Shown here: one piece after another, positions 1,100 to 16,806 of the stretch | How the letters are laid out: the number at the start of each line of letters is the position of its first letter | Numbering within the stretch: the stretch's first letter is position 1 | From: an uncultured Granulosicoccaceae bacterium | Lineage (GTDB): Bacteria; Pseudomonadota; Gammaproteobacteria; Granulosicoccales; Granulosicoccaceae | Assembly (NCBI GenBank): GCA_937957915.1 | Contig: CALGNZ010000124.1 | Coordinates: 1 to 64,000, forward strand | Length of the DNA: 64,000 nucleotides | Direction of reading: 5' to 3' | Notes under the pieces: generated by a model | Database searches by the model: none | Told to the model about the DNA's origin: nothing | Seen by the model: the letters and a program-made list of their open reading frames with translations, nothing else | Position numbers and translations under genes: made by a program

Positions 1100-2575
1100 C
1101 TAGGGCAGGCAATCCATGTATTCATCGGCATCCCAGTCGGTGACCGTTGACATGAATTTTTCCCACTCATCACGCTTGTACCAGTTAAAGACTTTGTACA
1201 TTTCGTCTGGCATAGAGGCTTTGATAACCTCGTCTGCTTCGAGGCGATCGAGTGCATCACCCAGTGACATTGGAAGTTTCTTCACTTCTTTACCCGCTTC
1301 CATTGCCTCGTAGATGTTGCGCTCTTCGGGCTCACCCGGATCCAGGTCGTTATCGATACCATCGTCGAATGCCGCGAGAATACCGGTACCCATCAGGTAG
1401 GGGTTAACCATTGAATCAACAGAGCGATATTCAAAACGCCCTGGTGCAGATACGCGCATGCCCGTCGTTCGGTTCTGATATCCCCAGTCTGCAAAGACCG
1501 GTGCCCAAAAACCCGTATCCCATAAACGACGATAGGAGTTCACGGTAGAACAACCAATTGCGGTCAGCGCATTGATGTGCTCCATGAAACCACCGATTGA
1601 CTGCAGCCCGATCTTGCCTGGTTTCTGTGGATCGTTATCGTCTGGCATAAACGTGTTTTCGCCGCCTTCAACATAAGTGAACGCCTGCGCCATACCCGGT
1701 AGTTCACTTTCGTCTTTGAACATGATCTTGTTGACGACATCTTCACCACCACGCCACAGCGATACATTATGGTGACAGCCTGATGCTGAAACGCCCATAA
1801 ACGGCTTGGTCATAAAGCAGGCTATCAGATCAAATTCTCGAGCTACCTGTGCGCAAATTTGCCGATAGGTGGAAAGCCTGTCAGCGTTTCTTAATATGTC
1901 GTCAAACTGCCAGTTGAGTTCTAACTGCCCGGGTGCGTCTTCATGGTCGCCCTGAATCATGTCTAGACCCATGGCCTGCGAATATTCGATGACACGCATG
2001 CTGACCGGTCGCAGTGATTCGAACTGATCAATGTGGTAGCAATAAGGCTTTGAGTAGCCGCCATTCGGCTTGCCATCTTCGCCCTTCTTGAGCCACATCA
2101 TTTCAGGTTCGGTGCCACAACGCAGTTGCAGCCCGTGCTTGGCCTGAAAGTCCTGATGCTGAAATTTGAGGTTGCCGCGGCAATCAGAAGTCAGGTGACC
2201 ACCGGGGTTAACTTTTTCTTCGCGGTTGCGAAAGCACACGCAAAATACGCGAGCGATTTTCTTGTCCCATGGCAGTTGTACAAAGGTATCAGGATCAGGA
2301 ATACCAACCAGCTCTGCTGACTCAGGACCGTAGCCGATGTAGTCGCCATGGCGGTCTACGAACAGATTGGCAGTGGAGCCATAGACCAGTTGAAAGCCTT
2401 TATTGGCTGTTCGCTCCCAGTGGTTGGAGGGAATGCCCTTGCCGACAATGCGTCCGGTTACAGAAATAAACTGGTAGTAGATGTAGGTGACGCCAAGCTC
2501 GTCGATCTTTTCACGAACCTGCTTTATAAGGTCTTCCCGGCCGTCTTCGTTGACGTATTTTTCTAGATCTGTCAT
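1100..2575 (-). CDS. gmaS: Gamma-glutamylmethylamide synthetase (glutamine synthetase family, GlnT/GmaS type)
   Basis: A 491-aa glutamine-synthetase-fold protein. Seen: a beta-grasp N-terminal part (YIYYQFISVTGRIVGKGIPS), the metal-site stretch GTEPEMMWL, the GDHEDAPGQLELNW segment (equivalent of the second catalytic EapGQ..E motif), SASGCHHNVSLW (ATP/His loop) and RVSAPGRFEYRSVD (glutamate-binding RxPG..R equivalent). Start at the ATG 2575, preceded by GGGGGAA 4 nt away, rather than the upstream in-frame Met. GmaS condenses glutamate and methylamine with ATP; type III GlnT makes glutamine. I choose GmaS because mgsA, tdm, tmm and tmoXVW are close by, but sequence alone does not exclude GlnT. 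It is divergent from the GntR regulator across a 711-bp repeat-rich region. Confidence 0.7.
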   Translation of the reverse strand: MTDLEKYVNEDGREDLIKQVREKIDELGVTYIYYQFISVTGRIVGKGIPSNHWERTANKGFQLVYGSTANLFVDRHGDYIGYGPESAELVGIPDPDTFVQLPWDKKIARVFCVCFRNREEKVNPGGHLTSDCRGNLKFQHQDFQAKHGLQLRCGTEPEMMWLKKGEDGKPNGGYSKPYCYHIDQFESLRPVSMRVIEYSQAMGLDMIQGDHEDAPGQLELNWQFDDILRNADRLSTYRQICAQVAREFDLIACFMTKPFMGVSASGCHHNVSLWRGGEDVVNKIMFKDESELPGMAQAFTYVEGGENTFMPDDNDPQKPGKIGLQSIGGFMEHINALTAIGCSTVNSYRRLWDTGFWAPVFADWGYQNRTTGMRVSAPGRFEYRSVDSMVNPYLMGTGILAAFDDGIDNDLDPGEPEERNIYEAMEAGKEVKKLPMSLGDALDRLEADEVIKASMPDEMYKVFNWYKRDEWEKFMSTVTDWDADEYMDCLP

Positions 2576-2870
2576 CTGATTCCCCCTGTTCGTTGTTAGT
2601 CGCAACTACAGACCCCGCATCAATTACCGCTATTTGGCAGCCTGCAGCCTATTCGGAAACAGTGCGTACGGTTGAGTAGTCTGGATGCTTTGATGCAAAC
2701 CAAAAACCCAATTATGTACCTTTTCCAACCAATACTATAACTCTCTTCTTTCAACAGTTTCCAGCCTAATTGGTAAAAAAGGGCGCAATTTGTAATATTA
2801 CCGCTGAAGTTGGAATTGTAAGTTGAAAACAACTGAATAACACGGTAGGTTCTAGATCTGCTAACACATA

Positions 2871-2901
2871 ACCAATTAAGTACCAATTTGTACCAATTGG
2901 T
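2871..2901. promoter_or_regulatory. Three helically phased ACCAAT direct repeats (candidate operator)
   Basis: ACCAAT begins at 2871, 2882 and 2892; the last two are part of TACCAAT, and the third forms the palindrome ACCAATTGGT (2892-2901). The 11- and 10-bp spacing places every copy on the same face of the helix. The same TACCAAT pair with 11-bp spacing recurs upstream of tmoX (15391-15407), so the motif links gmaS and the TMAO transporter. Confidence 0.55.
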
Positions 2902-2998
2902 TGTTTTTAGCTGTTAGCTAACGCGGTAGAGTGTCAGCGGAGTGTTTCGACGCGAATTGCCCGGCGCTGAATAACGCCGACCGCTGGAGTCTGAAATC

Positions 2999-3046
2999 GC
3001 AACTGCGCAGAAGTGCAACTACGCAGAAGTGCAACTGCGCAGATGT
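2999..3046. repeat. 16-bp tandem repeat, three copies
   Basis: GCAACTGCGCAGAAGT, GCAACTACGCAGAAGT and GCAACTGCGCAGATGT follow each other without a gap; each differs from the first at one base. It lies in the gmaS-gntR intergenic region. A shorter duplication, CAGCCAGGAA at 3081-3090 repeated 13 bp on, follows shortly after. Confidence 0.9.
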
Positions 3047-3286
3047 GATTGCGTCTGTGTAGCGCAGAGAGCTGTGGCGGCAGCCAGGAACAGCAGCCAG
3101 GAACTCATGGTTGATCGTAGTATCGATCGACTGCTTTTGCCGTACAGCAACTGATAATCCACCGGACACACCAGCCCGGACAGGACAGATTAAAGTGGGA
3201 GGATGCCTTGATGACACACCCGGTTCCAATCAGAACCGTATTGCAGCTCCACATCTGCATCACATTCGTACTGCAATTGGTGCCCT

Positions 3287-4006
3287 ATGAGTGACGTGAC
3301 GACCGGCTCTGGCAACAGCGCAGGTAACAGCTACAGCGGCGATGCAGGAACTGTATCGGCTGAATTGCGCCGCAAGATTCTGGCAGGCGAGTACCGCCAT
3401 GACGAAAGGCTACCGGCTGAGCGGTCTCTGGCGCAACAATTCGGCTGCTCTCGTGGCACTGTGCGTTCAGCCATGGATAAACTCGAAGAACTCAGACTGA
3501 TTGAGCGACGCGTAGGCAGCGGCACATTTGTTAATCACCATGCCACCGCTGACGAAACCGAAATAGCCAACATCACCAGCCCGCTTGAATTAATAGATGT
3601 GCGCATGGGCCTGGAACCTCAAATAGCGCGCCTTGCTGTCATCAACGCAACGGCGGTCAACCTGCGCAAACTTGAAAGCGTGTTACTGGAACTGGAAAAG
3701 CTCACGAGCAACTGCACGCCCGAATCATTTACCGTGGCCGACCAAAGCTATCACCTCGCACTTGCAGAGTGCACTGGCAATGCCCTGATGATCTGGCTGT
3801 GTCAGCATATTCACGATGTACGCTCGCATCGACAGTGGAGCTCCATGAAAGACAAAATACTAAAGGCGGCACAAATCGAAATCTATAACACGCAACACCG
3901 ACTAATCTACGAAGCCATTTTCAGCCGCGACATCGATGAAGCCGCACGCATAACGATCGAACATCTCGACACAGCCCGCAACGATTTGATTGGAGCATCA
4001 CGGTGA
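3287..4006 (+). CDS. FadR-subfamily GntR transcriptional regulator
   Basis: A 239-aa regulator. The winged helix lies at about residues 22-80 (SAELRRKILAGEYRHDERLP, AERSLAQQFGCSRGTVRSAM, then the LIERRVGSGTFV wing), followed by an all-helical FCD ligand domain (about 95-230) with the Asp and His metal-type positions of that family (DQSYHLAL, TQHRLIYEAI). Its stop overlaps the tdm start in GTGA, so it is co-transcribed with and translationally coupled to tdm. Divergence from gmaS and the nearby TACCAAT repeats suggest it controls the methylated-amine genes. The effector, possibly TMAO or a pathway amine, is inference. Confidence 0.85.
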   Translation: MSDVTTGSGNSAGNSYSGDAGTVSAELRRKILAGEYRHDERLPAERSLAQQFGCSRGTVRSAMDKLEELRLIERRVGSGTFVNHHATADETEIANITSPLELIDVRMGLEPQIARLAVINATAVNLRKLESVLLELEKLTSNCTPESFTVADQSYHLALAECTGNALMIWLCQHIHDVRSHRQWSSMKDKILKAAQIEIYNTQHRLIYEAIFSRDIDEAARITIEHLDTARNDLIGASR

Positions 4007-6405
4007 ATGTGTTAGACCCCGCGATCAGAAGCCCGCTGGGCCAGCAATACCTTGCCGACACCTTTCTGGCATCGGGCGTATCCGGCATTATGAGACCGGG
4101 TATCAACAGCCTTCCCAATGGACTTGAGCGCTACCCGCTGCTTGCGGGCGGAATGATTGTGGTAGATCTGAAGCCCGGTGACGAACTCAAAGTCATTGAC
4201 CCGGAGGGCTTACAAGCCTGCGAAGTTGCAGTATTCGACAGCACCGGCGCTTGTAAGCCTGCGGCATTGAATAGCAATTGCCGTGAGAAAAAAAACAACA
4301 GCATTGCACAGTCACTCACCGCGCCAACCGAGAACATCAGGTCAATCAATGCAGCGCTAAAAAAGCGCAACATCGATACCGGCAACATTACCGCCCTCGC
4401 CTTCCTTGAGGGACAAACACAGCCTGGTCACAGCACGTCTGCGGTATGCGAGGCAGAGTTAACCTGTGTTGTTGCTGCACCATCAATTGACATGCCTGTT
4501 GATGAGCAAGTGCCGCCCACTGACCTGCTGGTGTACATCACCCGCGCTAATCCGGAACAGAACCCGGAACCGGTGCTACCCGAACCACTGGCAGACATGA
4601 CACTGGACTTGCGAGTGGAACGCTGCACCTCGCGTGCGTTTACCGTTAAAGCCGGTGACTACATACAGATCATCGATGTCGAAGGTCGCGAGTGCAGTGA
4701 CTTTCAATGCTTTGATATGGAAAAACTCGATCAGGGCATTGAACGCTGTCTCGATGCGACCACCACCCGAACACTGATGGCAAACGCCTACCCTCAACCC
4801 GGCTTGCATGCGAAATTCTACGACCAGGATATGAGTGCCATGGTCGAGGTTATACGCGACACCTGCGGCAGACACGATACCTTTGGCTTAGCCTGCACCG
4901 CAAAGTTCTATGACGATGCCGGCTACCCGGGACACGTTAACTGCAGCGACAACTTTAACTATGCATTAAGCCAGCACAATATCGCACCCCGGGCCGGCTG
5001 GATGGCCATGAACTTTTTCTTCAATACCGGCTACGACGACCACAATCAGCTTTTTTCAGATGAGCCATGGTCACGCCCTGGTGATTATGTGCTTATGCGG
5101 GCACTGAAAGACCTGGTCTGCGTGTCGTCTGCGTGCCCTGATGATATTGATCCGGCCAATGGCTGGAATCCAACTGATATACATGTCCGGGTTTACCCCG
5201 CCAAAAACGAATTCTCTACCGCGGTGGCCTACAGAATGACTCCTGACGCTGAACCCCAACTCACCAAAGAAACCGGCTTTCACAGCAGAACATCAACGCT
5301 TACGGGTAACTTCATTGAGTACAATGGCTACTGGCTGGCCAACCGCTTTAACAACCACGGCCCCATTGACGAGTACTGGGCATGCCGCGAAGGCGTTATT
5401 GTCACTGACCTGTCACCGTTGCGTAAGTATGAAATCCTTGGGCCCGATGCGGAAGAACTGCTGCAAACCTGTGTGACCAGAGATGTCAGACGATTATCAC
5501 CGGGCCAGGTCGTGTACACCGCCATGTGCTATGAAAACGGTGGGATGGTCGACGACGGTACCGTGTTTCGCATGTGCGAAACAAATTTCCGCTGGATAGG
5601 CGGCTCTGACTACAGCGGCGTGTGGTTGCGGCAACAGGCACAACTTCGCAATCTCAACTGCTGGGTGAAATCATCCACCGACCAACTGCACAACCTACAG
5701 GTTCAGGGACCAAAAAGCCGCGATGTGCTAAAAGAAATCGTCTGGACACGGCCTGATCAAACCCCTCTTGAAGACCTTGCGTGGTTCAGATTTTCAGTCG
5801 CTCGTCTCGGTCATGAGCACGGCACACCTATCCTTGTCTCGCGCACAGGATACACCGGTGAACTCGGCTACGAAGTCTGGTGTCACCCGAAAGACTGCGC
5901 TGAAGTGTGGGATGCTGTGATGGCTGCAGGCAAGCCACATAACATTACCCCGCTGGGTCTTGAGGCCCTCGACATGCTTCGTATTGAAGCCGGGCTTATT
6001 TTTGCAAACTACGAATTCAGTGATGAAACCGACCCGTATGAAGCAGGTATCTCGTTCACTGTGCCACTGAAAAGTAAAACCGATGATTTTATCGGACGTG
6101 AAGCCCTGCAAAAGCGTAAAGACAATCCGCAGAAAAAACTGGTTGGCCTTGAGCTACAGGGAGATGAACCTGCCGCTCACGGTGACTGCGTGCATATTGG
6201 CAGACAACAGATTGGTGTTGTAACCAGTGGTACCCGATCACCCAAGCTATCCAAAAACATTGCCCTTTGCCGGGTAACCGTTGAACACGCAGAACCAGGT
6301 ACGCAGGTAGAAGTGGGCAAGCTCGATGGCCATCAAAAACGCTTGCCTGCAACTGTCGTTAGCTATCCTTTTTATGATCCGGATAAGTCGCGCGTCAGAA
6401 TGTGA
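4003..6405 (+). CDS. tdm: Trimethylamine N-oxide demethylase (DUF1989-GcvT fusion)
   Basis: An 800-aa protein with a GTG start overlapping the regulator stop by 4 bp (GGAG 7 nt upstream). Residues about 200-400 are a DUF1989 (urea-carboxylase-associated) domain with the likely metal-site cysteines (GRECSDFQC, about 228-236; DTCGRHDTFGLAC, 287-298; HVNC, 311-314). Residues about 435-800 are a GcvT/aminomethyltransferase domain with the tetrahydrofolate-site GGMVDDGTV loop. Residues about 45-90 look like a second, degenerate copy of the DUF1989 beta unit (LKPGDELKVIDPEGLQACEV against VKAGDYIQIIDVEGRECSDF). This architecture and length match characterised Tdm, which splits TMAO to dimethylamine and formaldehyde without an external electron donor, the folate domain capturing the formaldehyde. 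Cytoplasmic, no signal peptide. Confidence 0.87.
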   Translation: MNVLDPAIRSPLGQQYLADTFLASGVSGIMRPGINSLPNGLERYPLLAGGMIVVDLKPGDELKVIDPEGLQACEVAVFDSTGACKPAALNSNCREKKNNSIAQSLTAPTENIRSINAALKKRNIDTGNITALAFLEGQTQPGHSTSAVCEAELTCVVAAPSIDMPVDEQVPPTDLLVYITRANPEQNPEPVLPEPLADMTLDLRVERCTSRAFTVKAGDYIQIIDVEGRECSDFQCFDMEKLDQGIERCLDATTTRTLMANAYPQPGLHAKFYDQDMSAMVEVIRDTCGRHDTFGLACTAKFYDDAGYPGHVNCSDNFNYALSQHNIAPRAGWMAMNFFFNTGYDDHNQLFSDEPWSRPGDYVLMRALKDLVCVSSACPDDIDPANGWNPTDIHVRVYPAKNEFSTAVAYRMTPDAEPQLTKETGFHSRTSTLTGNFIEYNGYWLANRFNNHGPIDEYWACREGVIVTDLSPLRKYEILGPDAEELLQTCVTRDVRRLSPGQVVYTAMCYENGGMVDDGTVFRMCETNFRWIGGSDYSGVWLRQQAQLRNLNCWVKSSTDQLHNLQVQGPKSRDVLKEIVWTRPDQTPLEDLAWFRFSVARLGHEHGTPILVSRTGYTGELGYEVWCHPKDCAEVWDAVMAAGKPHNITPLGLEALDMLRIEAGLIFANYEFSDETDPYEAGISFTVPLKSKTDDFIGREALQKRKDNPQKKLVGLELQGDEPAAHGDCVHIGRQQIGVVTSGTRSPKLSKNIALCRVTVEHAEPGTQVEVGKLDGHQKRLPATVVSYPFYDPDKSRVRM

Positions 6406-6840
6406 CTGGTGCCAATTGCGCTTTCCGGATTCGATAATGCAAAGCTTTACCCGGAATGACGCAATGGCGGCGGGAGCGCGTCACCGGCTGCGGGGTTGTT
6501 GGATCTACGAGTCCAACACCCACCTGTAGCAGCCCTGCTTGCTTCTGTTGCAGCAACAGCAATTGACTGATCTTCTATAATCCCCTGGTTTTGGGTGCAC
6601 GCTGACCAGTGCCCACAAACAAGCGCACTGCCGAGCCTGCCCCTGCCGACTGCCAGCGCACACATTGAACACCACCAGCTGTGGTTATTCAGAACCGGCC
6701 ACAGTGCTGGCGCGTGCGGCTGTCGACTACGCATTCCTCCAGCCTCTCATGTGCGCTGCACCTACCCGTATGTACCCAACATCCATCACACTTTCAGGCA
6801 AGCTGCTTAAAAACTGTTGCTTTTCTTTTTAAATCAAATT

Positions 6841-6857
6841 ACTTTATATTACAAAGT
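6841..6857. repeat. Inverted repeat, copy 1 of ACTTTR-N5-CAAAGY
   Basis: ACTTTATATTACAAAGT: half-sites ACTTTA and CAAAGT around a 5-bp spacer. Identical architecture to copies at 7004 and 7103. Confidence 0.7.
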
Positions 6858-6895
6858 ATAGTTGTATTAACACGGCTGTACCAAGCACAGTTTGC

Positions 6896-6937
6896 TTTAA
6901 GAACAGCGAGTTTTAAGAACAGTTGGTTTAAGAGCAG
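6896..6937. repeat. TTTAAGARCAG direct repeats, three copies
   Basis: TTTAAGAACAG at 6896 and 6912 and TTTAAGAGCAG at 6927, spaced 16 and 15 bp. They lie between the first and second inverted repeats upstream of the sortase target gene. Confidence 0.75.
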
Positions 6938-7003
6938 TTTTGATAAGCATGGCCGTGCGAGGTTTAGTGTTGCAGGCAAGGTAAGCCATTTTTTTAATCT
7001 TAC

Positions 7004-7020
7004 ACTTTGCATCACAAAGT
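7004..7020. repeat. Inverted repeat, copy 2 of ACTTTR-N5-CAAAGY
   Basis: ACTTTGCATCACAAAGT: perfect half-sites ACTTTG and CAAAGT, 5-bp spacer. Followed by AAAT as in copy 1 (A/T-rich flank). Confidence 0.75.
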
Positions 7021-7102
7021 AAATTAAACACAACCAGATACCATTATCTTGTGGCGGGTTAAAGAACAGAATTTATCCACCACCGACACACCACGCCAAT
7101 TA

Positions 7103-7119
7103 ACTTTGCTATGCAAAGC
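7103..7119. repeat. Inverted repeat, copy 3 of ACTTTR-N5-CAAAGY
   Basis: ACTTTGCTATGCAAAGC: half-sites ACTTTG and CAAAGC, 5-bp spacer. It is 46 bp ahead of the start codon, where a repressor or promoter element would be expected. Confidence 0.7.
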
Positions 7120-7165
7120 TAATTGCACCCCTTAAATACTGATCGTAAAAAGACGGAGCAATCAA

Positions 7166-9475
7166 TTGAACAACACCCGAACCCGACTTTCGCTAATGAC
7201 TCGCATAGGCATGGCGTTGTCATCGCTATGGATTACGACAGGCCTATTAACAACAATGGCATTCGCCGCTCCACACGTACCATTTAACGAGTTAACTCTG
7301 GACGATGTTAAGGCGGGATCACTGCTGCTACCCGCTGACAAGGCAGGTCACTATACTCAGGTTCCGGCACTGGACACTGTCATCACAGTTGACGTCAGTG
7401 GCATGTCCGCTCATCACGTTATCAATCAAACCTTCACCAATCCAAGTGACGAATGGATTGAAGCGGTTTACGTGTACCCCCTGCCCGACTCCGCGGCAGT
7501 CGATGAGTTGTCGATGATTATCGGGGATCAGCGAATAACAGGAGAGATTCAGACCAGAGCCCAGGCACGCCAAAACTACACAGCAGCGAAAAACAACGGA
7601 CAACGAGCGAGCCTGGTTGAGCGACAGCGGCCTAACCTGTTTACCACTCGCGTTGCAAACATACCGCCGCAAGGAGAAATACAGATCGAAATCGGTTTTC
7701 AGGCTGATGTTCGGTACGACGATGGTGTGTTTGGCTTAATTTTACCAATGACTATCACGCCTCGCTATATACCGGGCAATCAACTTCGACAGCAGGCGCT
7801 TGTCGATGAACACGCTATTGAAAGCAACGGCGGCAAGATGGCCGGAAACACACAACAAATAATAACCACAGGTGGCTGGGGACAACTTCCGGGCCTCGCA
7901 ACTGATCGGGTACCAGAGGCCTATGAGATCACCCCGCCCATGACCGATACTGCACCTCTAGCAACACTGAATATAGCCATAAACAGCGGTCTGACACTGG
8001 ACAAGATCTACAGCTCCAGTCACCACATAACTGTCGCAGAGGAACACTTACTGTACCGGGTGGCGTTTCCTGCCAACCAGGTGCCGATGGATCGTGACTT
8101 TATTCTAAACTGGCGCCCGTTACCCGGAACGAGCCCGCTGGCGGCAGTATTTACCCAGCAAGACAGTACTGAAGTTAACGCTCAGTCATCCACAGAGAAC
8201 AGCGCTGCTTATGCGTCGATAATGCTGGTACCACCGCAACAACTGTTCGAAGGCACCGTGCCATCACGTGAAGTAATATTTGTTATCGATAAATCAGGTT
8301 CTATGGATGGAAACTCGCTGGTTGCTGCAAAAGAAGCACTTGTTCTGGGTATACGCGGATTGGCTGACAACGATACTTTTAATATCGTGACCTTTAATGA
8401 TCAAACTTCAACCCTGTATAGCCAACCCGTAGCCGCTACCCGGTCGCACAAAGATCGGGCTGTTGCAAGCGTGCGTCGAATAACAGCTGGAGGCGGAACC
8501 GAAATCATGGGCGCATTAAACGCGGCACTTGCCAGCAGTTCCTATTCCGAGAGAGTCCGCCAGATTGTGTTTATTACAGATGGCAGCGTAGGTAACGAAG
8601 CAGAGATATTTAAACAAGTACAAAAAAAGCTGGGGAACAACCGCATTTTTACTGTCGGCATTGGCTCGGCACCGAACCGATGGTTTATGCGCAAGACTGC
8701 CGAGCTTGGCAGGGGTACGTACACCTACATTCCGGAAAGCGCCGAAGTCGCTGAAAAAATGCAGGCCCTGTTCCACAAACTCGAACGCCCGGTGCTCAGC
8801 AACCTGCAATTACAATTCAGTGGCGTGAGTAACCCCGAGTATTACCCGGTCACTGTGCCGGATCTCTATGCGGGTGAACCGGTACTCATTGATGTGCGCA
8901 GTATCGAGCCTCTGCAGGGAGCTGAACTTCGTATAAGCGGCGACGAAAACGGCCAGCCCTGGAGCCAAACGCTGAAGCTCGACAGCCACACGAACAATAG
9001 ACAATCCGGTTTAGACAAACTGTGGGCGCGACGAAAGATTACCGAACTCGAAAACAGCCTGTTGTTCAACAATGATGCCAGCACCATTAAGCGCAAGGCC
9101 ACGGAAACCGCACTTGAGTACGGACTGGTTAGCCGCTACACCAGCCTGGTTGCCATCGAACAGACGATTGCTCGTGATGTATCAATTGATTCGCTAACAG
9201 GCAAAGAAGTACCGCTTGCAATGCCTGCTGGCAGTAACATGCAAAACCCTTCACACAACAACACGGGGCACTCACAATCCTCCGCATCGAGCCAGCCCCA
9301 TACAGCCAGACAACCGTCTGTCTCTGTACCGCAGACACACCCCGACGGCAGCCCGATGCCGATACCGCAGGGCAACCTGGGTATAGTGCTACACCTGCTA
9401 CTGTCGCTGCTTATGTCTTCGTCTGTAGCGGTCGGCGCGTGGTTTACCAGGAGGCGCAAGCATGTTGCGCTCTAG
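7166..9475 (+). CDS. Marine proteobacterial sortase target protein (VIT + von Willebrand A)
   Basis: A 769-aa exported protein. The start is TTG (7166), with GGAG 7 nt upstream; the next ATG is 10 codons in. A signal peptide ends near AFAA (about residue 33). A VIT domain (about 45-175; YVYPLPDSAAVDELSMIIGD) precedes a vWA domain (about 368-540) with a complete MIDAS start, DKSGS, and the FITDGSVGNE segment. The C-terminus is a Ser/Pro/His-rich linker, a hydrophobic helix (about 738-758) and RRRKH, i.e. a sortase sorting tail. It overlaps the sortase gene by 14 bp. The family is known as the paired substrate of class-GN sortases in marine Proteobacteria. No textbook LPXTG is visible; VPQTH or PIPQG just before the helix are the nearest candidates. 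Function beyond envelope anchoring is unknown. Confidence 0.88.
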   Translation: MNNTRTRLSLMTRIGMALSSLWITTGLLTTMAFAAPHVPFNELTLDDVKAGSLLLPADKAGHYTQVPALDTVITVDVSGMSAHHVINQTFTNPSDEWIEAVYVYPLPDSAAVDELSMIIGDQRITGEIQTRAQARQNYTAAKNNGQRASLVERQRPNLFTTRVANIPPQGEIQIEIGFQADVRYDDGVFGLILPMTITPRYIPGNQLRQQALVDEHAIESNGGKMAGNTQQIITTGGWGQLPGLATDRVPEAYEITPPMTDTAPLATLNIAINSGLTLDKIYSSSHHITVAEEHLLYRVAFPANQVPMDRDFILNWRPLPGTSPLAAVFTQQDSTEVNAQSSTENSAAYASIMLVPPQQLFEGTVPSREVIFVIDKSGSMDGNSLVAAKEALVLGIRGLADNDTFNIVTFNDQTSTLYSQPVAATRSHKDRAVASVRRITAGGGTEIMGALNAALASSSYSERVRQIVFITDGSVGNEAEIFKQVQKKLGNNRIFTVGIGSAPNRWFMRKTAELGRGTYTYIPESAEVAEKMQALFHKLERPVLSNLQLQFSGVSNPEYYPVTVPDLYAGEPVLIDVRSIEPLQGAELRISGDENGQPWSQTLKLDSHTNNRQSGLDKLWARRKITELENSLLFNNDASTIKRKATETALEYGLVSRYTSLVAIEQTIARDVSIDSLTGKEVPLAMPAGSNMQNPSHNNTGHSQSSASSQPHTARQPSVSVPQTHPDGSPMPIPQGNLGIVLHLLLSLLMSSSVAVGAWFTRRRKHVAL

Positions 9476-10022
9476 CATCCTTGCGCTGCTATTTGCTGTC
9501 GCGCTCTTTCCGGCCGTAAAAGCCGGCTACTGGATGGCCAAAGCAGAGCTTGCTCAGGTGCTGATAAAACGTGCATGGATCAACGGTGACCCAAACGCAC
9601 TTCCCTGGCCCTGGGCTGACACGCAGCCGGTAGCGCGCCTGCAAATCAAGAGCCACGACATCGATGCCCTGGTGCTCGGCGGTGGCAACGATCACGCTTT
9701 GGCTTTTGGCCCGGGCCTGACCAATGCATCCGTTGCACCAGGTGCACCTGGCATTACTTTGATAGGCGCTCATCGCGATACGCAATTCGCCTCGTTACAG
9801 CATATCGAGGTTGGTACGGAAATTAGAATACAGGGAGAGGACCGTAGGTGGCACAACTATAAGGTACGTGACCTGCAGATAATTGATGATGCCACGGTGA
9901 GCCTGCAGAACAATGTGGACGAACCTACGCTCGTGCTAACCACCTGCTACCCCTTTGATCCGCTGGTGATGCACAGCACCAAAAGACTGCTGGTGACTGC
10001 AATTGCGGTTACTGGCGAATAA
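9462..10022 (+). CDS. Class GN sortase
   Basis: A 186-aa single-pass membrane transpeptidase. An N-terminal hydrophobic anchor (about 5-22) is followed by a sortase fold. The catalytic triad is visible: His104 in GAHRDT, Cys162 in LTTCYPF and Arg175 in TKRLLV. GGAGG lies 7 nt upstream of the ATG, within the 3' end of the target gene, with a 14-bp overlap, so the pair is translationally coupled. Class GN sortases in Gram-negative bacteria are dedicated to one adjacent substrate. The pair interrupts the TMAO locus and is probably an independent module. Confidence 0.92.
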   Translation: MLRSSILALLFAVALFPAVKAGYWMAKAELAQVLIKRAWINGDPNALPWPWADTQPVARLQIKSHDIDALVLGGGNDHALAFGPGLTNASVAPGAPGITLIGAHRDTQFASLQHIEVGTEIRIQGEDRRWHNYKVRDLQIIDDATVSLQNNVDEPTLVLTTCYPFDPLVMHSTKRLLVTAIAVTGE

Positions 10023-10141
10023 ACGATAGGGTTTTAAAAAAATAGACGAGGCGTTACAGGTGATTCAGCAATGACAAACAACGACCCGATCATCAGGTTA
10101 ATACCATGAAGCATATCGATGCACTTGAAGCACACAACTCG

Positions 10142-10843
10142 CTAGAAGAAATCCCTCAATACAGGGTTTGCCTCGAGCAATGGCGCGACCAGTTTCGCGT
10201 TCTCGTCAATAACAACTATATCGTGCATGTGGACCAGCCCGTCGTGCACTTTCAGTTTACTATTTTGAGGTAACGACCAGGTTTGACCACCAATGCTCAA
10301 CAACTCTTTTTCCAGCGCTTTAGAAATGAGGATTGTAAGGCCGTCTCGAGTCTCGTCACCAGAGATTTTACTATTCAAATAAGGGTAGTCAGGACTGACC
10401 AGCTGAAAGCCGCTACCAAACCACGGCACCAGAAAATGTTCGGTCTTTAACGCAGGGTTTTCATATGCCGGCCAGTACTCCGTCGGCACAACCACAAAAA
10501 CCGCATTGCTCCAATATGGCTGTGTGTCAACGGTGGACAGGTATTCCACATAAAAACTTTTTGTACCGAGGTATACGCCCTTAAAGAAATCGTTTTGTGG
10601 CTGGGTGTATACCTTGCCCACGTCTTTTTCTTCCCAGATCGATTCTATCGATTCCAGAAACTGATTGTTGGCGTAGACCGGAAACATGACATGATCGATT
10701 TCCAATTCCATAGAATCATCCCCTTTGGCCAATGGCGACAAGGAAAAACCCAGTGCCACACAACACACAAAAAGCACGCGTCGCACCCGGAGCCTGCCCG
10801 ACAATAGTCGATCTACCGTCAACGCGATCTTTTGGTCAGCCAT
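10142..10843 (-). CDS. Exported protein of unknown function (possible glyoxalase-like fold)
   Basis: A 233-aa protein starting at the ATG 10843 (an in-frame GTG lies one codon earlier; GGA is 5 nt upstream of the GTG). Residues about 15-42 form a signal peptide or membrane anchor (VLFVCCVALGFSLSPLAKG). The mature part begins ELEIDHVMFPVYANNQFLES, a beta-strand with DHV that resembles the opening of vicinal-oxygen-chelate domains, but the remaining metal ligands are not evident. It lies 106 bp downstream of tmoW on the same strand and might be the last gene of that operon. Product not recognised. Confidence 0.6.
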   Translation of the reverse strand: MADQKIALTVDRLLSGRLRVRRVLFVCCVALGFSLSPLAKGDDSMELEIDHVMFPVYANNQFLESIESIWEEKDVGKVYTQPQNDFFKGVYLGTKSFYVEYLSTVDTQPYWSNAVFVVVPTEYWPAYENPALKTEHFLVPWFGSGFQLVSPDYPYLNSKISGDETRDGLTILISKALEKELLSIGGQTWSLPQNSKLKVHDGLVHMHDIVVIDENAKLVAPLLEANPVLRDFF

Positions 10844-10952
10844 CACGATCCATATTTATTTCAAACCAGCACGAGCCGGTGCGCTTCGAACCACTCAGAG
10901 CACTCTACCTTTGTGAACTCGTATTGGCTGTTTTCGATAGGGGCGGATTCTC

Positions 10953-13013
10953 CTAGTCCATGCCCAACGCTGCTTTTCTTTGGTTTGCCCAGGTACGCAG
11001 AATCTGATCAATTGCCAGGCCGATAAATGCAACACAAAGACCAAGCACCAGACCATTTCCGACACCTGCTTTATCTGACAATGATTTGAGAATAAGCTGC
11101 CCGAGGTCATCCGTGCCAATCAATGCTCCGATGATTACCATCGACAGAGCAAACACAACCGTCTGGTTAATGCCCAGTGCAATATGCGGAAAGGACAGAG
11201 GAAATTCGATGGACATCAAACGCTGTATGCGGTTAACGCCGGACATGGAGCCGGCATCCTGCAAGGCCTCCGGCACACTTCTTAAACCCTCTACCGTATA
11301 ACGAGCCGCCGGTATTGTTGCGTAGACGACAATCGCGATAAGCACCGAGGTATCGGTGACACCAAACAGCATCATCACTGGAATCAGATAGATAAAGGAC
11401 GGAAACGTTTGAAAGGTATCGCACACAGTCAATATGAAACGCGAAGATGCCGGATGTTGAGCGCATATGGTACCGACGACAATGCCTATAAAACCAGAAA
11501 TAAGCACCGCCATTGTCATCAGGTAAGAGGTGATCAACGCTCTGTCCCACCATTCAGTCAGCGCGATGAATAACAGAAACCCACCCACAATTAGCGCAGA
11601 CCTGATTCCACCAACAATAAAACCGGTGCCCATCGCCAAAGTGAAAGTCGCAGCCACCGGCATACTGAGATAAGCAGTTTTAACCGGCACCAATACTTCC
11701 ACAATAAACCACTCATTAAAACCTTTTAAGGTGTAGAAAAAGGTATCCCATAGCCAGTCAACACCAGCCTGCCAGAAGGGCTCAGTGGTGATACCTTTGT
11801 TATGGGGAATCAGATACAGATAGTTAAAACCGTCCCTGAATATAAATGATCCTATCCAGGCGATTACCGTGCCCGTGCAGAACACCATAAAAAACATCAA
11901 TGAATACTTGTGTCGTTCCTTGAATGACTGATCAGCAAAATAGTCGGTCTGTTTATTGGCCCACGCAAGTGACAACCTGTCGAGAACGATCGCTATCAAC
12001 ACGATGCAAACACCGATCTCCAAAGCCAGCCCGATGCGCAGTCGATTCAACGCAATCAGCAAATCATTGCCCAGACCTTTAGCGCCGATCAGCGATGCAA
12101 TAACTACCATGGCCAGGCACTGCATAATGACCTGGTTAACACCGATGAGTATGTCGCGTCGCGCTGTTGGAATCAGCACCTGCCGCAATAATTGCCAGTC
12201 GCTGCAGCCTGTCATCAACCCGGCTTCGGCGACCTCTGGCGGCACTTTTTTAAGGCCGAGAATTGTCAGGCGCACCATCGGCGGTGTCGCAAAAATAATA
12301 GTGGCAATAGCGCCAGCGTGATCACCGATACCGAAAAACACCATAACCGGTATCAGGTAGGCAAAGTGCGGCATAATCTGCGCAACATTAAGCAGTGGAT
12401 TGAGTATTGTTTCTACAGTTTTGTTTTTATACCCCCACACACCGAGCACCAGACCAAGAAAAATTGCTACCGGTGCGGCGATCAACACAAAGGACAGAGT
12501 CTGCATGGAAGGCTCCCACTGTCCAAACACGGCGATATAGACAAATGCAGCACCGGTAAACAACGCCAGACCAATTCCGCTTAATGCATAACCCAGTATT
12601 GCTGCACCACCTGCCACAACCGTCCACGGCAATGCCGGCCAGCGAGCCCACTTATTTTCGGTTGCCCAGTCCCAGCCGCTGAAGGTGACGATGGTCTTTA
12701 CACCACCGAGCATTATTTCGCGCACAAATTCAATCAGAAAAAGAACCACACCCGAGATACCCCGCGTAATTTCTCGTAGCAACGGTTTTTGTTCGTACTC
12801 CTCAATCTCGGGATCGTACACTTCGATAGGCCACCACTCGAACATCAGGTAGTCGACACCGTTATTGATTACCAAAGGCATTTGTTTGAGCAACGGTGGC
12901 AGGCGCCACAGCCAGTTGCCATCAGATGGCGCGATAAACATACACATCAGGAGAAATACGATAATCAGCAGAATAAACTGCAGATATTTCTTCTCCCGTA
13001 GCAGGTCGATCAT
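10953..13013 (-). CDS. tmoW: TMAO/betaine-type ABC transporter permease, duplicated (TmoW)
   Basis: A 686-aa inner-membrane protein made of two fused ProW-like permease halves. Each half carries an EAA loop for docking to the ATPase: EAGLMTGCSDWQLLRQVLIP (about 260-280) and DAGSMSGVNRIQRLMSIEFP (about 595-615). About 14 hydrophobic segments are seen. This fused architecture and length match TmoW of the Ruegeria TMAO importer rather than the single-domain ProW. The ATG overlaps the tmoV stop in ATGA (13010-13013). Substrate assignment depends on the tdm/tmm context; a glycine-betaine or choline specificity is the alternative. Confidence 0.8.
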   Translation of the reverse strand: MIDLLREKKYLQFILLIIVFLLMCMFIAPSDGNWLWRLPPLLKQMPLVINNGVDYLMFEWWPIEVYDPEIEEYEQKPLLREITRGISGVVLFLIEFVREIMLGGVKTIVTFSGWDWATENKWARWPALPWTVVAGGAAILGYALSGIGLALFTGAAFVYIAVFGQWEPSMQTLSFVLIAAPVAIFLGLVLGVWGYKNKTVETILNPLLNVAQIMPHFAYLIPVMVFFGIGDHAGAIATIIFATPPMVRLTILGLKKVPPEVAEAGLMTGCSDWQLLRQVLIPTARRDILIGVNQVIMQCLAMVVIASLIGAKGLGNDLLIALNRLRIGLALEIGVCIVLIAIVLDRLSLAWANKQTDYFADQSFKERHKYSLMFFMVFCTGTVIAWIGSFIFRDGFNYLYLIPHNKGITTEPFWQAGVDWLWDTFFYTLKGFNEWFIVEVLVPVKTAYLSMPVAATFTLAMGTGFIVGGIRSALIVGGFLLFIALTEWWDRALITSYLMTMAVLISGFIGIVVGTICAQHPASSRFILTVCDTFQTFPSFIYLIPVMMLFGVTDTSVLIAIVVYATIPAARYTVEGLRSVPEALQDAGSMSGVNRIQRLMSIEFPLSFPHIALGINQTVVFALSMVIIGALIGTDDLGQLILKSLSDKAGVGNGLVLGLCVAFIGLAIDQILRTWANQRKAALGMD

Positions 13014-14104
13014 GAACCTGCTCCTGACGACAGCTCTGCAGGCAGCCCTGCAGACTGTTGCGATCGCCCACCAAACAACACCTTAACTACGCGTGATGCG
13101 TGGACTGCACCAACAATTTGCCCGTTCTCATCTATCACTGGCACGGGTTTGTCAGCATTGAGTACAACTTCAGCAACCGTTTCAATGATCGCGTCTTTCG
13201 ACACCCGCAGGTCGCTCACTGCCCCCTCGGGATTATAGTCGTCCATGACTGATTCTATTTTCAAAACCTTTTCACGTGGTACTTCTTCAGTGAACTTTCG
13301 TACGTACTCGGTAGCCGGGTTCAGTACGATGTTGGCCGGTGTATCGAGTTGTTCGATAATTCCGTCTTTCATGATCGCTATTCGATCAGCCAGGCGCAGG
13401 GCCTCGTCGAAATCGTGAGTAACAAATAAAATAGTTTTACTCAAGACACCCTGCAAGCGAAGAAACTCATCCTGCATCTCTTTCCGGATTAGCGGATCAA
13501 GTGCAGAGAATGGCTCATCAAGAAACCAGATATCGGGTTCGATGGCGAGTGACCGTGCAATTCCGACTCTTTGTTGCTGCCCTCCGGATAGCTGACGTGG
13601 AAAGTAATTTTCGCGACCAGAGAGACTCACCAGGTCAATCATTTCTGATGCACGTTGAATGCTCTCTTTGGTACTTACGCCCTTAACCTGTAACGGAAAC
13701 GCGATGTTTTCCAGTACTGTTTTATGTGGCAACAACGCAAAGCTCTGAAAGACCATACCCATTTTACTGCGTCGCAACTGAATCAACTGCTTGTTGTTCA
13801 TCGCCATGATATCTTCACCTTCGATGAAGACTTTGCCGGCTGTTGCACGAGTCAGCCTTGAAATGCAGCGCAACAAGGTAGATTTACCTGAACCGGATAA
13901 ACCCATAATGATAAGCAATTCACCCTGGTGAACTTCAAACGAGGCATTGTTTACACCAACAATGCACCCTGCCTCCTGGAAGCGCGCAGCGTCAACCACA
14001 CCATTGGATTCCTGCATCATCCGCTTTGCATTGTCACCGAATACTTTGTAAACGGAATCGCAACGGATAACGGGTTCATTCGAGTTTGAAGCTGCTGAAG
14101 ACAT
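13010..14104 (-). CDS. tmoV: TMAO/betaine-type ABC transporter ATPase with CBS tail (TmoV)
   Basis: A 364-aa ProV-like ATPase. Walker A GLSGSGKST is at about 68-76, the ABC signature LSGGQQQRVGIARSL at about 168-182, Walker B IWFLDEPFSALDP and the switch His in FVTHDFDEAL follow. The C-terminal 90 residues (KDAIIETVAEVVLNADKPVP, then a second short unit) resemble a CBS-type regulatory module as in ionic-strength-gated betaine importers. Stop overlaps the tmoW start by 4 bp. It is separated from tmoX by a 160-bp gap that contains a strong terminator-like hairpin. Confidence 0.82.
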   Translation of the reverse strand: MSSAASNSNEPVIRCDSVYKVFGDNAKRMMQESNGVVDAARFQEAGCIVGVNNASFEVHQGELLIIMGLSGSGKSTLLRCISRLTRATAGKVFIEGEDIMAMNNKQLIQLRRSKMGMVFQSFALLPHKTVLENIAFPLQVKGVSTKESIQRASEMIDLVSLSGRENYFPRQLSGGQQQRVGIARSLAIEPDIWFLDEPFSALDPLIRKEMQDEFLRLQGVLSKTILFVTHDFDEALRLADRIAIMKDGIIEQLDTPANIVLNPATEYVRKFTEEVPREKVLKIESVMDDYNPEGAVSDLRVSKDAIIETVAEVVLNADKPVPVIDENGQIVGAVHASRVVKVLFGGRSQQSAGLPAELSSGAGS

Positions 14105-14168
14105 AGAGGTTAGATTAGCTCTGTTTTCGGTTCTTGAATCTGCGGCTTACGGGTTATCTGTTACCGCC

Positions 14169-14207
14169 AAAAAAAAAGCCCCCTGGTTCGACTTCGCGCC
14201 AGGGAGC
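14169..14207 (-). terminator. Intra-operon terminator/attenuator after tmoX
   Basis: In the minus-strand transcript GCUCCCUGG pairs with CCAGGGGGC (one G-U pair) around a 12-nt loop, followed directly by nine U (14177-14169). It sits 57 nt after the tmoX stop and ahead of tmoV. Partial termination here would give more binding protein than permease/ATPase, a common arrangement for ABC importers. Confidence 0.85.
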
Positions 14208-14264
14208 TCTTGGGTCCAAGCTAATGCCCGACAAGTTCTATTGCAGGCATCTCAAGCGTTAGCC

Positions 14265-15218
14265 TTACTTGGTCCAGGGCATCCAGACACTTTCGTTGTC
14301 TTTAAGCCACTTGGCAGCTGCATCTTTATGGTCCATTTTGTCGGTATCAACCAGGGCGGCCATTTGACCAATCTGCGTGGTTGTGAAGTCGAGCTTTGTG
14401 AACGCAGTATAGGCAGCGGGGTGAGTTTTAGGGAACTTGTAGTTCGCGGCTTTCTTTAACCAGCCTTTAGGTGAACCACATTTACCGTCGCCACCGTCTT
14501 CCTTACGGCATCCTTCTTCATAGGGAGGGAATTCAATAAATGTAAAACCGTCTGCATCAGTGAAGTTTGGTGTCCAGTTGAATACCACGGTACCACGGCC
14601 TTCTTTCTTTGCAGCGGCGAGTTCGGTCCACAGTGCATCGGCACCACCTGCAAACTTAACCGTCCACTTATCAGCCAAACCCAGTGCTTCCAGTCTTTCA
14701 GGCATTAAGTCACCGTGCCAGCTTTGCGGACCTTCAAGCCAGCGTCCCTTGCCACCGGAATCGGGAGTAGTAAAGTTGGCGTGACAATCTTTCAGTGCTT
14801 CCCAGTTTGGCAAACCGGGGCAGAGATCTTTTTCGATCACCCAGGTAGGCACACCCATTTCTTCAAGCGTAGTTGCTGAATGTGTACCAGCGTCAATGAC
14901 GCCGCCTTTTGCCATTGCGTTATAAAAGGATTTACCGAAGGTAGACTGCCAGACTTCGTGAGATAGTGTAACGTCACCATTACGGATAGATTCATAAACT
15001 GCTTGAGAATCCGCGGGTACGTATTCAACATTGTTACCCATGCTCTCGAACATACCGCCGATAACATAGGCCATAACAATCTGGCTCGACCAGTTATGTA
15101 TTGGTATAACAATGGGTGACGTGCTGTCCGCAGCTTTAGCAACACCTGTTGCAGAAAGCAGAGAAACGCAACCGGCGACCAGCAATGACCGGAACATTTT
15201 TGGTGTTTGTAGCTTCAT
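14265..15218 (-). CDS. tmoX: TMAO-binding periplasmic protein (TmoX, OpuAC/ProX family)
   Basis: A 317-aa type II periplasmic binding protein. The signal peptide runs to about residue 30 (VAKAADS). Aromatic residues expected in a trimethylammonium box are present: Trp43 (HNWSSQ), Trp90 (HEVWQS) and VFNWTPNFTDADG, with an acidic Glu88 two residues before Trp90. Characterised TmoX uses a Trp box with an acidic residue to bind TMAO. GGGGGA lies about 9 nt upstream of the ATG. It is the first gene of a leftward tmoX-tmoV-tmoW unit, downstream of TACCAAT repeats. Betaine specificity cannot be excluded from sequence, but tdm and tmm nearby support TMAO. Confidence 0.82.
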   Translation of the reverse strand: MKLQTPKMFRSLLVAGCVSLLSATGVAKAADSTSPIVIPIHNWSSQIVMAYVIGGMFESMGNNVEYVPADSQAVYESIRNGDVTLSHEVWQSTFGKSFYNAMAKGGVIDAGTHSATTLEEMGVPTWVIEKDLCPGLPNWEALKDCHANFTTPDSGGKGRWLEGPQSWHGDLMPERLEALGLADKWTVKFAGGADALWTELAAAKKEGRGTVVFNWTPNFTDADGFTFIEFPPYEEGCRKEDGGDGKCGSPKGWLKKAANYKFPKTHPAAYTAFTKLDFTTTQIGQMAALVDTDKMDHKDAAAKWLKDNESVWMPWTK

Positions 15219-15595
15219 ATGTTTATTCCCCCGAAGGATTGGAAAGACCCGCCCACAGGCATATCTAGCGGGTTCGACAACGCAACTCTGATTTTACAAT
15301 CAGGGCGTTCAAAAAGTACCATTGAAACGTACCATTATTGTCCCTGACAGACAATTAAACTGACCGAAAAATTCAAACGACTCTTTTCAGACCAATGTTG
15401 TACCAATACAAGCCCATAGCCTCATTGTTATCCGCACTTTCGCTTTTTTATCACCGCGCCTGACGCCGGATTTGGCCGGGCTGTACAATCGAAGCTTTTA
15501 TTATTGACGCACATGATTCAATTTAACTATTTCAAAATCAGCCGAACAGCGCGAGTTTCTATGATTGCCGAAAACTACTGCAACGCCGCAAGTAC
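15219..15595. promoter_or_regulatory. Divergent promoter region of tmoX and the second binding protein
   Basis: A 377-bp region without genes. It contains GTACCATT at 15316 and 15329 (13 bp apart) and ACCAAT at 15391 and 15402 (11 bp apart, the second within TACCAAT). These match the repeats upstream of gmaS and suggest common control, probably by the GntR protein at 3287-4006. Confidence 0.55.
15391..15407. promoter_or_regulatory. ACCAAT direct-repeat pair (candidate operator)
   Basis: ACCAATGTTGTACCAAT, two ACCAAT copies 11 bp apart. The pair at 2882-2897 upstream of gmaS reads ACCAATTTGTACCAAT, i.e. the same with a 10-bp period. Confidence 0.55.
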
Positions 15596-16585: not shown

Positions 16586-16630
16586 CGGATGAGATTGCAG
16601 TGAGCACCTCACCAGCCCCGCCTGGCCCTG

Positions 16631-16690
16631 CTCCCGAGGTGATAGCTCCCGAGGGTGATAGCTCTCGAGGTGATAGCTCTCGAAGCAATA
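16631..16690. repeat. 15-16-bp tandem repeat, three copies plus a partial
   Basis: CTCCCGAGGTGATAG, CTCCCGAGGGTGATAG and CTCTCGAGGTGATAG are consecutive, then a degraded fourth copy starts CTCTCGAAGCAATA. It lies between the second binding protein and tmm, well ahead of the tmm start at 16807. Confidence 0.88.
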
Positions 16691-16806
16691 CCGTCGAATT
16701 ATTGCTGTATTACATGTGATAACGCGTCTGATCGTTTTCAGTCACCGCGTAATCTGAGATACTACAAAACATTGTTGTTCGCTATACATTCAAACGGGGA
16801 AAATTA

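What the first reader, a model, noticed from the sequence alone, without database searches (positions are those of the whole stretch)
2871..15407. Helically phased ACCAAT repeats shared by gmaS and tmoX control regions
ACCAAT occurs at 2871, 2882, 2892 and at 15391, 15402, i.e. at 10-11-bp spacing in two distant intergenic regions of the same pathway. GTACCATT at 15316 and 15329 is a variant. ATTGGT sits six bases before gntR. This suggests a regulon operator for the FadR-type regulator at 3287-4006, with an unusual direct-repeat layout; FadR-family operators are usually palindromes.
Basis: partly seen in the sequence, partly recalled or inferred. Interest (0 to 1): 0.75.

Follow-up and report, generated by a model that had tools for sequence, protein, structure and literature searches.

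The report
Direct-repeat switch for methylamine genes
Short DNA words repeated once per helical turn in front of the methylamine-use genes of a marine bacterium are a widely shared control element that most likely lets the neighbouring GntR-type regulator hold these genes off until methylated amines are being used, but nobody has yet shown the regulator binding them.

Summary
The repeats are real, at the stated places, and not chance: the only exact ACCAAT direct pairs at 7-16 bp spacing in 64 kb are the three reported; 0 of 60 shuffles gave a 10/11-bp pair. Two elements were missed: an array against the likely gmaS -10 box (2707-2733; 12 of 12 regions, the window's included) and a near-invariant block before tmoX. 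In 51 gmaS-gntR regions ATTGGT/ACCAAT occurs 130 times against 14.4 in shuffles, in direct steps near 10, 20 and 30 bp; no exact FadR-type palindrome. The array goes with an adjacent gntR, not with gmaS alone: 14 of 16 gmaS loci with gntR beside them have a 10/11-bp pair, 4 of 29 without. A site model, partly trained on them, finds only these three places in the own genome. Best reading: operators of a gmaS-linked GntR/FCD regulator, probably a repressor of gmaS, gntR-tdm and tmoXWV, working like NanR on direct repeats. It is not NanR, and in Roseovarius it is a different gene from the GntR near tmm. Binding, effector and sign are untested. The ATTGGT before gntR is not conserved.

The parts
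2707..2733 (.). Array A: three half-sites CCCAAT-N5-ACCTTT-N4-ACCAAT at 11- and 10-bp steps, directly against the likely gmaS -10 box
   Evidence: Found in 12 of 12 gmaS-gntR regions, the window's and 11 relatives'; model hit 2706-2726
2734..2763 (-). Likely gmaS promoter: TGGAAA (2763-2758), 18-bp spacer, TATAGT (2739-2734)
   Evidence: One promoter-like site, 9 of 12 matches; shuffles give a mean of 1.0, so not significant by itself; the ACTATAA/AATATAA next to array A is kept in 12 of 12
2871..2901 (.).
   Evidence: in relatives this element varies between direct and inverted layouts
15391..15407 (.). Array T1 upstream of tmoX: ACCAAT-N5-ACCAAT
   Evidence: 9 of 11 tmoX upstream regions have a 10/11-bp pair within one mismatch; model hit 15389-15410
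15316..15336 (.).
15338..15354 (.). TTGTC-N7-GACAA palindrome joined to the 15329 copy; conserved block of the tmoX promoter region, binder unknown
   Evidence: Block pattern matched in 10 of 11 tmoX upstream regions, imperfect in L047
3287..4006 (+). gntR: GntR winged helix plus FCD domain, proposed cognate regulator
   Evidence: Pfam PF00392 and PF07729; model pLDDT 87.6, pTM 0.64
1100..2575 (-). gmaS-like gene (glutamine-synthetase family); proposed target
   Evidence: Pfam PF00120; no NCBIfam cut-off is reached, so the name gmaS rests on its neighbours and on the finding
4003..6405 (+). tdm, TMAO demethylase, overlapping the end of gntR; proposed target through gntR
   Evidence: NCBIfam NF053776, 1219.9 bits against a cut-off of 1100
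10953..15218 (-). tmoX, tmoW, tmoV: OpuAC binding protein, ATPase, permease; proposed target
   Evidence: Pfam domains; the tmo names are inferred
16807..18147 (+). tmm, trimethylamine monooxygenase; no array before it in this window
   Evidence: NCBIfam NF058570, 811.5 bits against 675; no pair in 16586-16806

Best explanation
The ACCAAT/ATTGGT arrays are operators of the gmaS-linked GntR/FCD regulator. Shown by comparison: half-sites repeat head to tail about once per helical turn in the control regions of gmaS, gntR-tdm and tmoXWV; array A lies directly against the likely gmaS -10 box; the arrays go with an adjacent gntR gene in Gamma- and Alphaproteobacteria. Inferred: without substrate, GntR dimers sit side by side on one face of the DNA and block RNA polymerase at gmaS and tmoX and at the regulator's own promoter; as in NanR, each dimer may put one domain on a half-site and the other on neighbouring DNA. 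Inferred further, weakly: the FCD domain with its invariant histidines senses a pathway metabolite, perhaps a carboxylate such as gamma-glutamylmethylamide or N-methylglutamate rather than the amine, and lets go.
For: Exact half-sites in 51 gmaS-gntR regions: 130 against 14.4 in shuffles. Direct pairs at 11 bp: 11 exact against 0.01, and 52 against 1.4 with one mismatch; further peaks near 20 and 30 bp. 41 of 51 regions have a 10/11-bp pair. Array A in 12 of 12. gmaS-chosen survey: 14 of 16 with an adjacent gntR against 4 of 29 without, Fisher p 1.7e-6. In the family of G063, 15 of 15 gntR upstream regions printed have an exact half-site, also where gntR is apart from gmaS. Genome-wide model: 3 hits at E up to 5 in the own genome, all here; over 14 genomes 24 of 27 hits at E up to 0.3 lie at gmaS-gntR or tmoX; G008, not used for training, has its two best hits beside gmaS and beside gntR. 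Half-site fits the FadR-subfamily TKGT/ACMA box (PMC4494728, passages).
Against: No binding data. 10 of 51 regions and 2 of 11 tmoX regions lack a 10/11-bp pair within one mismatch. Part of the signal is inverted: ACCAAT..ATTGGT at 13-14 bp is enriched. With one mismatch, ATTGGT-N4-ACCAAT occurs 3 times before tmoX against 0.18 expected. The triple pattern over 14 genomes gave 9 matches against 8 for the reversed control; only its location (5 of 9 at gmaS) is telling. In the survey the 29 regions without gntR are fixed stretches of up to 600 bases, many of them coding, so they are not a matched background, and relatives are not independent. Model E-values are rough, three training sites are the window's own, and only the best 150 of 1155 first-look candidates were scored in the own genome. 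No promoter-like site was found on the tmoX strand. NanR's cooperativity needs an N-terminal extension; here the N-terminus is variable and of low confidence.
Confidence: 0.72

Rival explanations
1. The arrays are sites of an AraC-type activator like TmaR, whose family often uses direct repeats (recalled), not of GntR.
For: In R. pomeroyi TmaR binds the promoters of gmaS-mgs, tdm and others and activates most of the pathway (PMC13390433).
Against: The arrays go with an adjacent gntR gene, not with gmaS alone (14 of 16 against 4 of 29). Array A overlaps the start side of the promoter, a repressor position. No AraC domain among the 10 window proteins scanned; the genome was not searched for one.
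Confidence: 0.12
2. Another regulator, for example a response regulator of the OmpR/PhoB type that binds direct repeats at 10-11 bp (recalled), uses the arrays, and gntR is only a co-inherited neighbour.
For: Identical half-sites at 10-11-bp steps are typical of such proteins (recalled).
Against: Arrays stay at the gntR control region also where gntR is apart from gmaS, and the half-site fits the GntR/FadR box.
Confidence: 0.08
3. The GntR protein binds, but classic inverted pairs (ACCAAT..ATTGGT at 13-14 bp, or ATTGGT-N4-ACCAAT) are the functional sites and the direct repeats are spare half-sites that raise local concentration.
For: Inverted ACCAAT..ATTGGT at 13-14 bp is enriched (6 exact against about 0.01); a review reports weaker extra half-sites 7-12 nt from palindromic GntR sites (PMC4494728, passages); the Roseovarius tmm promoters have an inverted ATTGGT/TTTGGT-N4-ACCAAT.
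Against: Array A, in 12 of 12, and T1 have no inverted partner in the window, and outside the Granulosicoccaceae-like set exact inverted pairs at 13-14 bp number 1 against 9 direct pairs at 11 bp.
Confidence: 0.15
4. Chance repeats in AT-rich DNA.
For: Array B and the ATTGGT before gntR vary among relatives.
Against: 0 of 60 shuffles; 130 against 14.4; array A in 12 of 12.
Confidence: 0.02

Closest known systems
NanR of Escherichia coli (GntR family, FCD, sialic-acid repressor)
   Same: FadR-subfamily GntR/FCD protein; TGGT-type half-site in direct repeats (TGGTATAW, PMC4494728 passages); three dimers bind three repeats cooperatively, one domain of a dimer on the consensus and one beside it (PMC8012715 passages)
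   Different: Half-site ATTGGT, not GGTATA; steps of 10-11 bp; different pathway; below the NCBIfam NanR cut-off (76.9 against 260 bits); cooperativity untested
PdhR, LldR and UxuR (FadR subfamily)
   Same: Nearest NCBIfam models besides NanR; TKGT/ACMA half-site
   Different: They use palindromes (PMC4494728); all three models score below their cut-offs (78.3 of 330, 88.1 of 311, 88 of 442 bits)
TmoR of Ruegeria pomeroyi (GntR repressor of tmm, PMC13390433)
   Same: GntR-family regulator in the same pathway; the same half-sites cluster before tmm in Roseovarius
   Different: Here gntR is linked to gmaS and no array lies before tmm; in three Roseovarius genomes a GntR gene near tmm exists besides the gmaS-linked one and forms its own clade. 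R. pomeroyi TmoR itself was not available for comparison
TmaR of Ruegeria pomeroyi (AraC master activator, PMC13390433)
   Same: Acts on gmaS-mgs and tdm promoters
   Different: AraC type, activator; its sites are not given in the parts I read (1-4 of 6)

Membership tests
GntR family, FadR subfamily (protein) | GntR winged helix plus FCD effector domain | tested here: met
   PF00392 and PF07729 above cut-off
FadR-type operator | Palindrome TKGT-N2/3-ACMA | tested here: not met
   0 exact ATTGGT..ACCAAT pairs at 2-15 bp in 51 regions; no dyad in the half-site profile
NanR-type operator | Direct repeats of a TGGT-type half-site | tested here: met
NanR-type operator | GGTATA repeat sequence | tested here: not met
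   Conserved word is ATTGGT; the two bases after it are loosely AC/TT only
NanR (protein) | NCBIfam NanR cut-off | tested here: not met
   76.9 bits against 260
NanR (mechanism) | Cooperative binding of one dimer per repeat | not testable with these tools
   Needs purified protein
NanR (mechanism) | N-terminal extension that carries cooperativity | tested here: inconclusive
   Residues 1-16 of low confidence; length varies among orthologues
PdhR, LldR, UxuR | NCBIfam cut-offs | tested here: not met
TmoR | Gene beside tmm and operator at the tmm promoter | tested here: not met
   gntR lies by gmaS; no pair at 16586-16806
TmoR | Sequence orthology to SPO1553 | not tested
   Sequence not at hand; only a positional stand-in was compared
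TmaR regulon | AraC-type regulator gene in this genome | not tested
   Only 10 window proteins were scanned

The most novel reading that the evidence does not exclude
Methylated-amine GntR/FCD regulators form an operator class of their own: ATTGGT half-sites head to tail on one face of the helix, two to four per promoter, in either orientation, filled by cooperating dimers so that the number of half-sites sets the strength of repression; the tmm-linked paralogues use the same half-site in a mixed direct and inverted layout.
Probability: 0.3. Interest if true: 0.7.

Novelty: new variant of a known kind. Interest (0 to 1): 0.55.

Why it matters
Methylated amines are an important part of marine dissolved organic nitrogen (abstract, PMC13390433), and gmaS is reported in about 23% of surface-ocean microbial genomes (start of the abstract of PMC7948447, seen in the listing). 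The 2026 paper on this pathway names TmaR and TmoR; in parts 1-4 of 6 that I read it gives no operator sequence and no gmaS-linked GntR. If right, this adds a concrete, testable operator and regulon for a third regulator found in Alpha- and Gammaproteobacteria, and a second case besides NanR of a FadR-subfamily protein on direct repeats.

Tried and rejected
Chance: against shuffles. FadR/PdhR palindrome: looked for, no exact case, no dyad in the profile. The ATTGGT before gntR: the window and one of 11 relatives. Equating this GntR with TmoR: in three Roseovarius genomes (L245, L246, L247) a GntR gene lies 1.7-3.6 kb from tmm besides the gmaS-linked one and forms its own clade (100/100); its place relative to the gmaS-linked groups is open, and three rows of unknown linkage (L024-L026) fall among the gmaS-linked ones on a long branch. 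I call it TmoR-like by position only. In L244 no GntR gene was found within the 16 kb around tmm, though half-sites are there. In the one Rhizobium plasmid looked at, no GntR gene is annotated within 8 kb of tmm. Wider regulon: the three hits up to E 0.3 away from gmaS-gntR and tmoX are L199 (before a reading frame that looks like a dimethylglycine-dehydrogenase-type enzyme, by eye), L201 and L190; L201 lies in a small unconvincing frame, L190 was not followed. Plasmid search with gntR: best identity 38%; with gmaS: two records, 52-53%. tmm in the family of G698: 0 of 16. Foldseek: TM-scores about 0.4-0.55, so it only confirms the GntR/FCD fold.

Rows dropped. Of 49 loci L058-L106, seven without a divergent gmaS within 2 kb were not used and seven were skipped as copies of genomes already held; one of these, L105, had no counterpart in the set and was lost, leaving 35 plus 16 = 51. 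For seven regions over 1000 bases only the last 400 bases before gntR were used. Of 13 tmoX loci, L049 (behind tdm, no own promoter) and L057 (paralogue) were left out, leaving 11. The gmaS survey examined 45 loci; one search listed 12 more gmaS places without a locus, one of them already held as L155, so 11 were not examined. In L142 and L150 (gntR adjacent, no pair counted) half-sites lie nearer gntR than the counted region reached. In L141 and L151, counted as without, gntR lies about 1.8 kb away. Five distant GntR hits (L173-L177) were left out of the upstream print. Pfam was run on 10 window proteins only.

Papers. PMC13390433: parts 1-4 of 6. PMC4494728, PMC6608401, PMC8012715: passages. 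PMC7948447: start of abstract in a listing. That no operator for a gmaS-linked GntR is in print is claimed only for the ten searches, open-licence papers, no supplements.
Full report
Setting. The region holds methylated-amine genes of a bacterium whose near relatives include records named Granulosicoccaceae. A gmaS-like gene (2575-1100, minus) and an amidotransferase gene (1018-68, minus) diverge from gntR (3287-4006) and tdm (4003-6405). tmoXWV runs leftward from 15218 to 10953, a second OpuAC-type binding protein lies at 15596-16585 and tmm at 16807-18147. Tdm and Tmm reach their NCBIfam cut-offs; the gmaS and tmo names are inferred.

Observation. Exact ACCAAT direct pairs with 7-16 bp spacing occur only at these places in 64 kb, and 0 of 60 dinucleotide shuffles had a 10/11-bp pair. 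The own genome has five such pairs, three of them here; the reversed pattern none.

Missed elements. Comparing the window with 11 relatives shows a more conserved array nearer gmaS, in the window CCCAATTATGTACCTTTTCCAACCAATACTATAA, with half-sites at 11- and 10-bp steps, ending against a likely gmaS -10 box; it is in 12 of 12. The promoter itself is a weak match, no better than shuffles give. Upstream of tmoX, 9 of 11 regions carry a 10/11-bp pair. Its orientation is flipped in L046 and L050.

Breadth. A scan of public genomes with the aligned regulator kept 49 orthologue-like loci (L058-L106) of 36-85% identity in Gamma- and Alphaproteobacteria; 42 of them have gmaS divergent within 2 kb. The scan returned 80 loci in all; the others are distant GntR proteins and were not used. 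In 51 gmaS-gntR regions exact half-sites number 130 against 14.4 in shuffles; exact direct pairs peak at 11 (11 cases), 19 (9), 30 (7) and 21 (5), each with a shuffle mean of 0.01 or less; no exact ATTGGT..ACCAAT pair stands closer than 16 bp. Outside the Granulosicoccaceae-like set: 9 exact direct pairs at 11 bp against a shuffle mean of 0; several of these regions come from near relatives of one another. Around 64 and 108 half-sites aligned on ATTGGT the strongest neighbour is another (A)TTGG about one turn upstream, with a weaker GG one turn downstream and no dyad partner. Against: 10 of 51 regions have no 10/11-bp pair within one mismatch, the 13-14-bp inverted pair is also enriched, and with one mismatch an inverted N4 pair occurs three times before tmoX. 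A looser triple pattern over 14 genomes gives 9 matches, 5 at gmaS, against 8 for the reversed control.

Which protein. Loci chosen by gntR cannot tell whether the array belongs to gntR or gmaS, so I surveyed gmaS loci in one alphaproteobacterial family, in the class and in the phylum. With gntR adjacent, 14 of 16 have a 10/11-bp pair; without, 4 of 29. The p-value of 1.7e-6 is overstated, because relatives are not independent and the regions without gntR are partly coding. In the family of G063, 15 of 15 gntR upstream regions printed carry an exact half-site near gntR, including those where gntR is apart from gmaS. This ties the array to gntR rather than to a general activator of gmaS.

Regulon. 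A sequence model of 21 sites, three of them the window's own, finds in the own genome only 2706-2726, 15389-15410 and 2870-2888 at E up to 5; the best 150 of 1155 first-look candidates were scored. Over 14 genomes of the genus, 24 of 27 hits up to E 0.3 lie at gmaS-gntR or tmoX. G008, which gave no training site, has its two best hits beside gmaS and beside gntR. G009 and G012, without tmoX and without a close gntR, have best E of 0.24 and 1.66. No pair lies before tmm in the window. Of nine further tmm loci, L239 and L241 have an 11-bp direct pair (ATTGGT-N5-ATTGGT; ACCAAT-N5-ACCAAA); the four Roseovarius ones (L236, L240, L242, L243) have clustered half-sites at 9- and 12-bp steps plus an inverted ATTGGT or TTTGGT-N4-ACCAAT; L235, L237 and L238 have no array (by eye). 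By strict count only one of the four Roseovarius regions has a 10/11-bp pair.

Mechanism. The protein is a FadR-subfamily GntR regulator, nearest by family models to UxuR, LldR, PdhR and NanR, all below cut-off, and by solved sequences to a streptococcal GntR protein, a chain labelled pyruvate dehydrogenase complex repressor, and NanR. A review gives the subfamily consensus as a TKGT/ACMA palindrome and names NanR, on direct repeats, as an exception (PMC4494728, passages). NanR binds three GGTATA repeats as three cooperating dimers, each with one domain on the consensus and one on neighbouring DNA (PMC8012715, passages). That is the best template here. Repression is inferred from the place of array A and from the family. 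The effector is unknown; invariant His156, His204, His226 and Asp152 would fit a metal site as in NanR, and a carboxylate ligand; in this pathway that would be gamma-glutamylmethylamide or N-methylglutamate. This is inference.

Relation to what is known. In R. pomeroyi TmoR (GntR) represses tmm, and TmaR (AraC) activates most of the pathway, binds the gmaS-mgs promoter and responds to a product made from monomethylamine (PMC13390433). The gmaS-linked GntR is a different gene from the GntR near tmm in three Roseovarius genomes; whether R. pomeroyi TmoR is that tmm-linked gene could not be tested. Both layers, an activator and this regulator, could act on gmaS together.

Verdict. Real, conserved and tied to gntR: most likely a direct-repeat operator of a GntR/FCD regulator of methylated-amine use. 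New variant of a known kind; binding remains to be shown.

Noticed in passing
window 15338-15354: TTGTC-N7-GACAA palindrome in the tmoX promoter block, near-invariant in relatives; it is not the ATTGGT motif and may belong to another regulator.
   Followed up: partly
L046 and L050 against L045 and L047, tmoX upstream: The T1 pair lies in opposite orientation at about the same place in close relatives, so the element seems to work either way round.
   Followed up: no
L199 1501-1518: A site-model hit (E 0.12) before a reading frame that looks like a dimethylglycine-dehydrogenase-type enzyme in genome G001; possible extra target.
   Followed up: partly
window 15596-16585: A second OpuAC-type binding protein between tmoX and tmm, about 32% identical to TmoX.
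   Followed up: no
L236, L240, L242, L243 upstream of tmm: Roseovarius tmm promoters carry about six ATTGGT-like half-sites, partly inverted; likely operators of a tmm-linked GntR.
   Followed up: partly
L156, L157: Second gmaS-like genes (56-57% identity) directly behind another reading frame, without gntR and without arrays.
   Followed up: no
window 7166-10022: A VIT/von Willebrand-like gene followed by a sortase-like gene between tdm and tmoV (by eye from the translations; not searched).
   Followed up: no
L002 1501-1517: One more ACCAAT-N5-ACCAAT pair of the own genome, 37 bases upstream of an ABC-ATPase reading frame.
   Followed up: no
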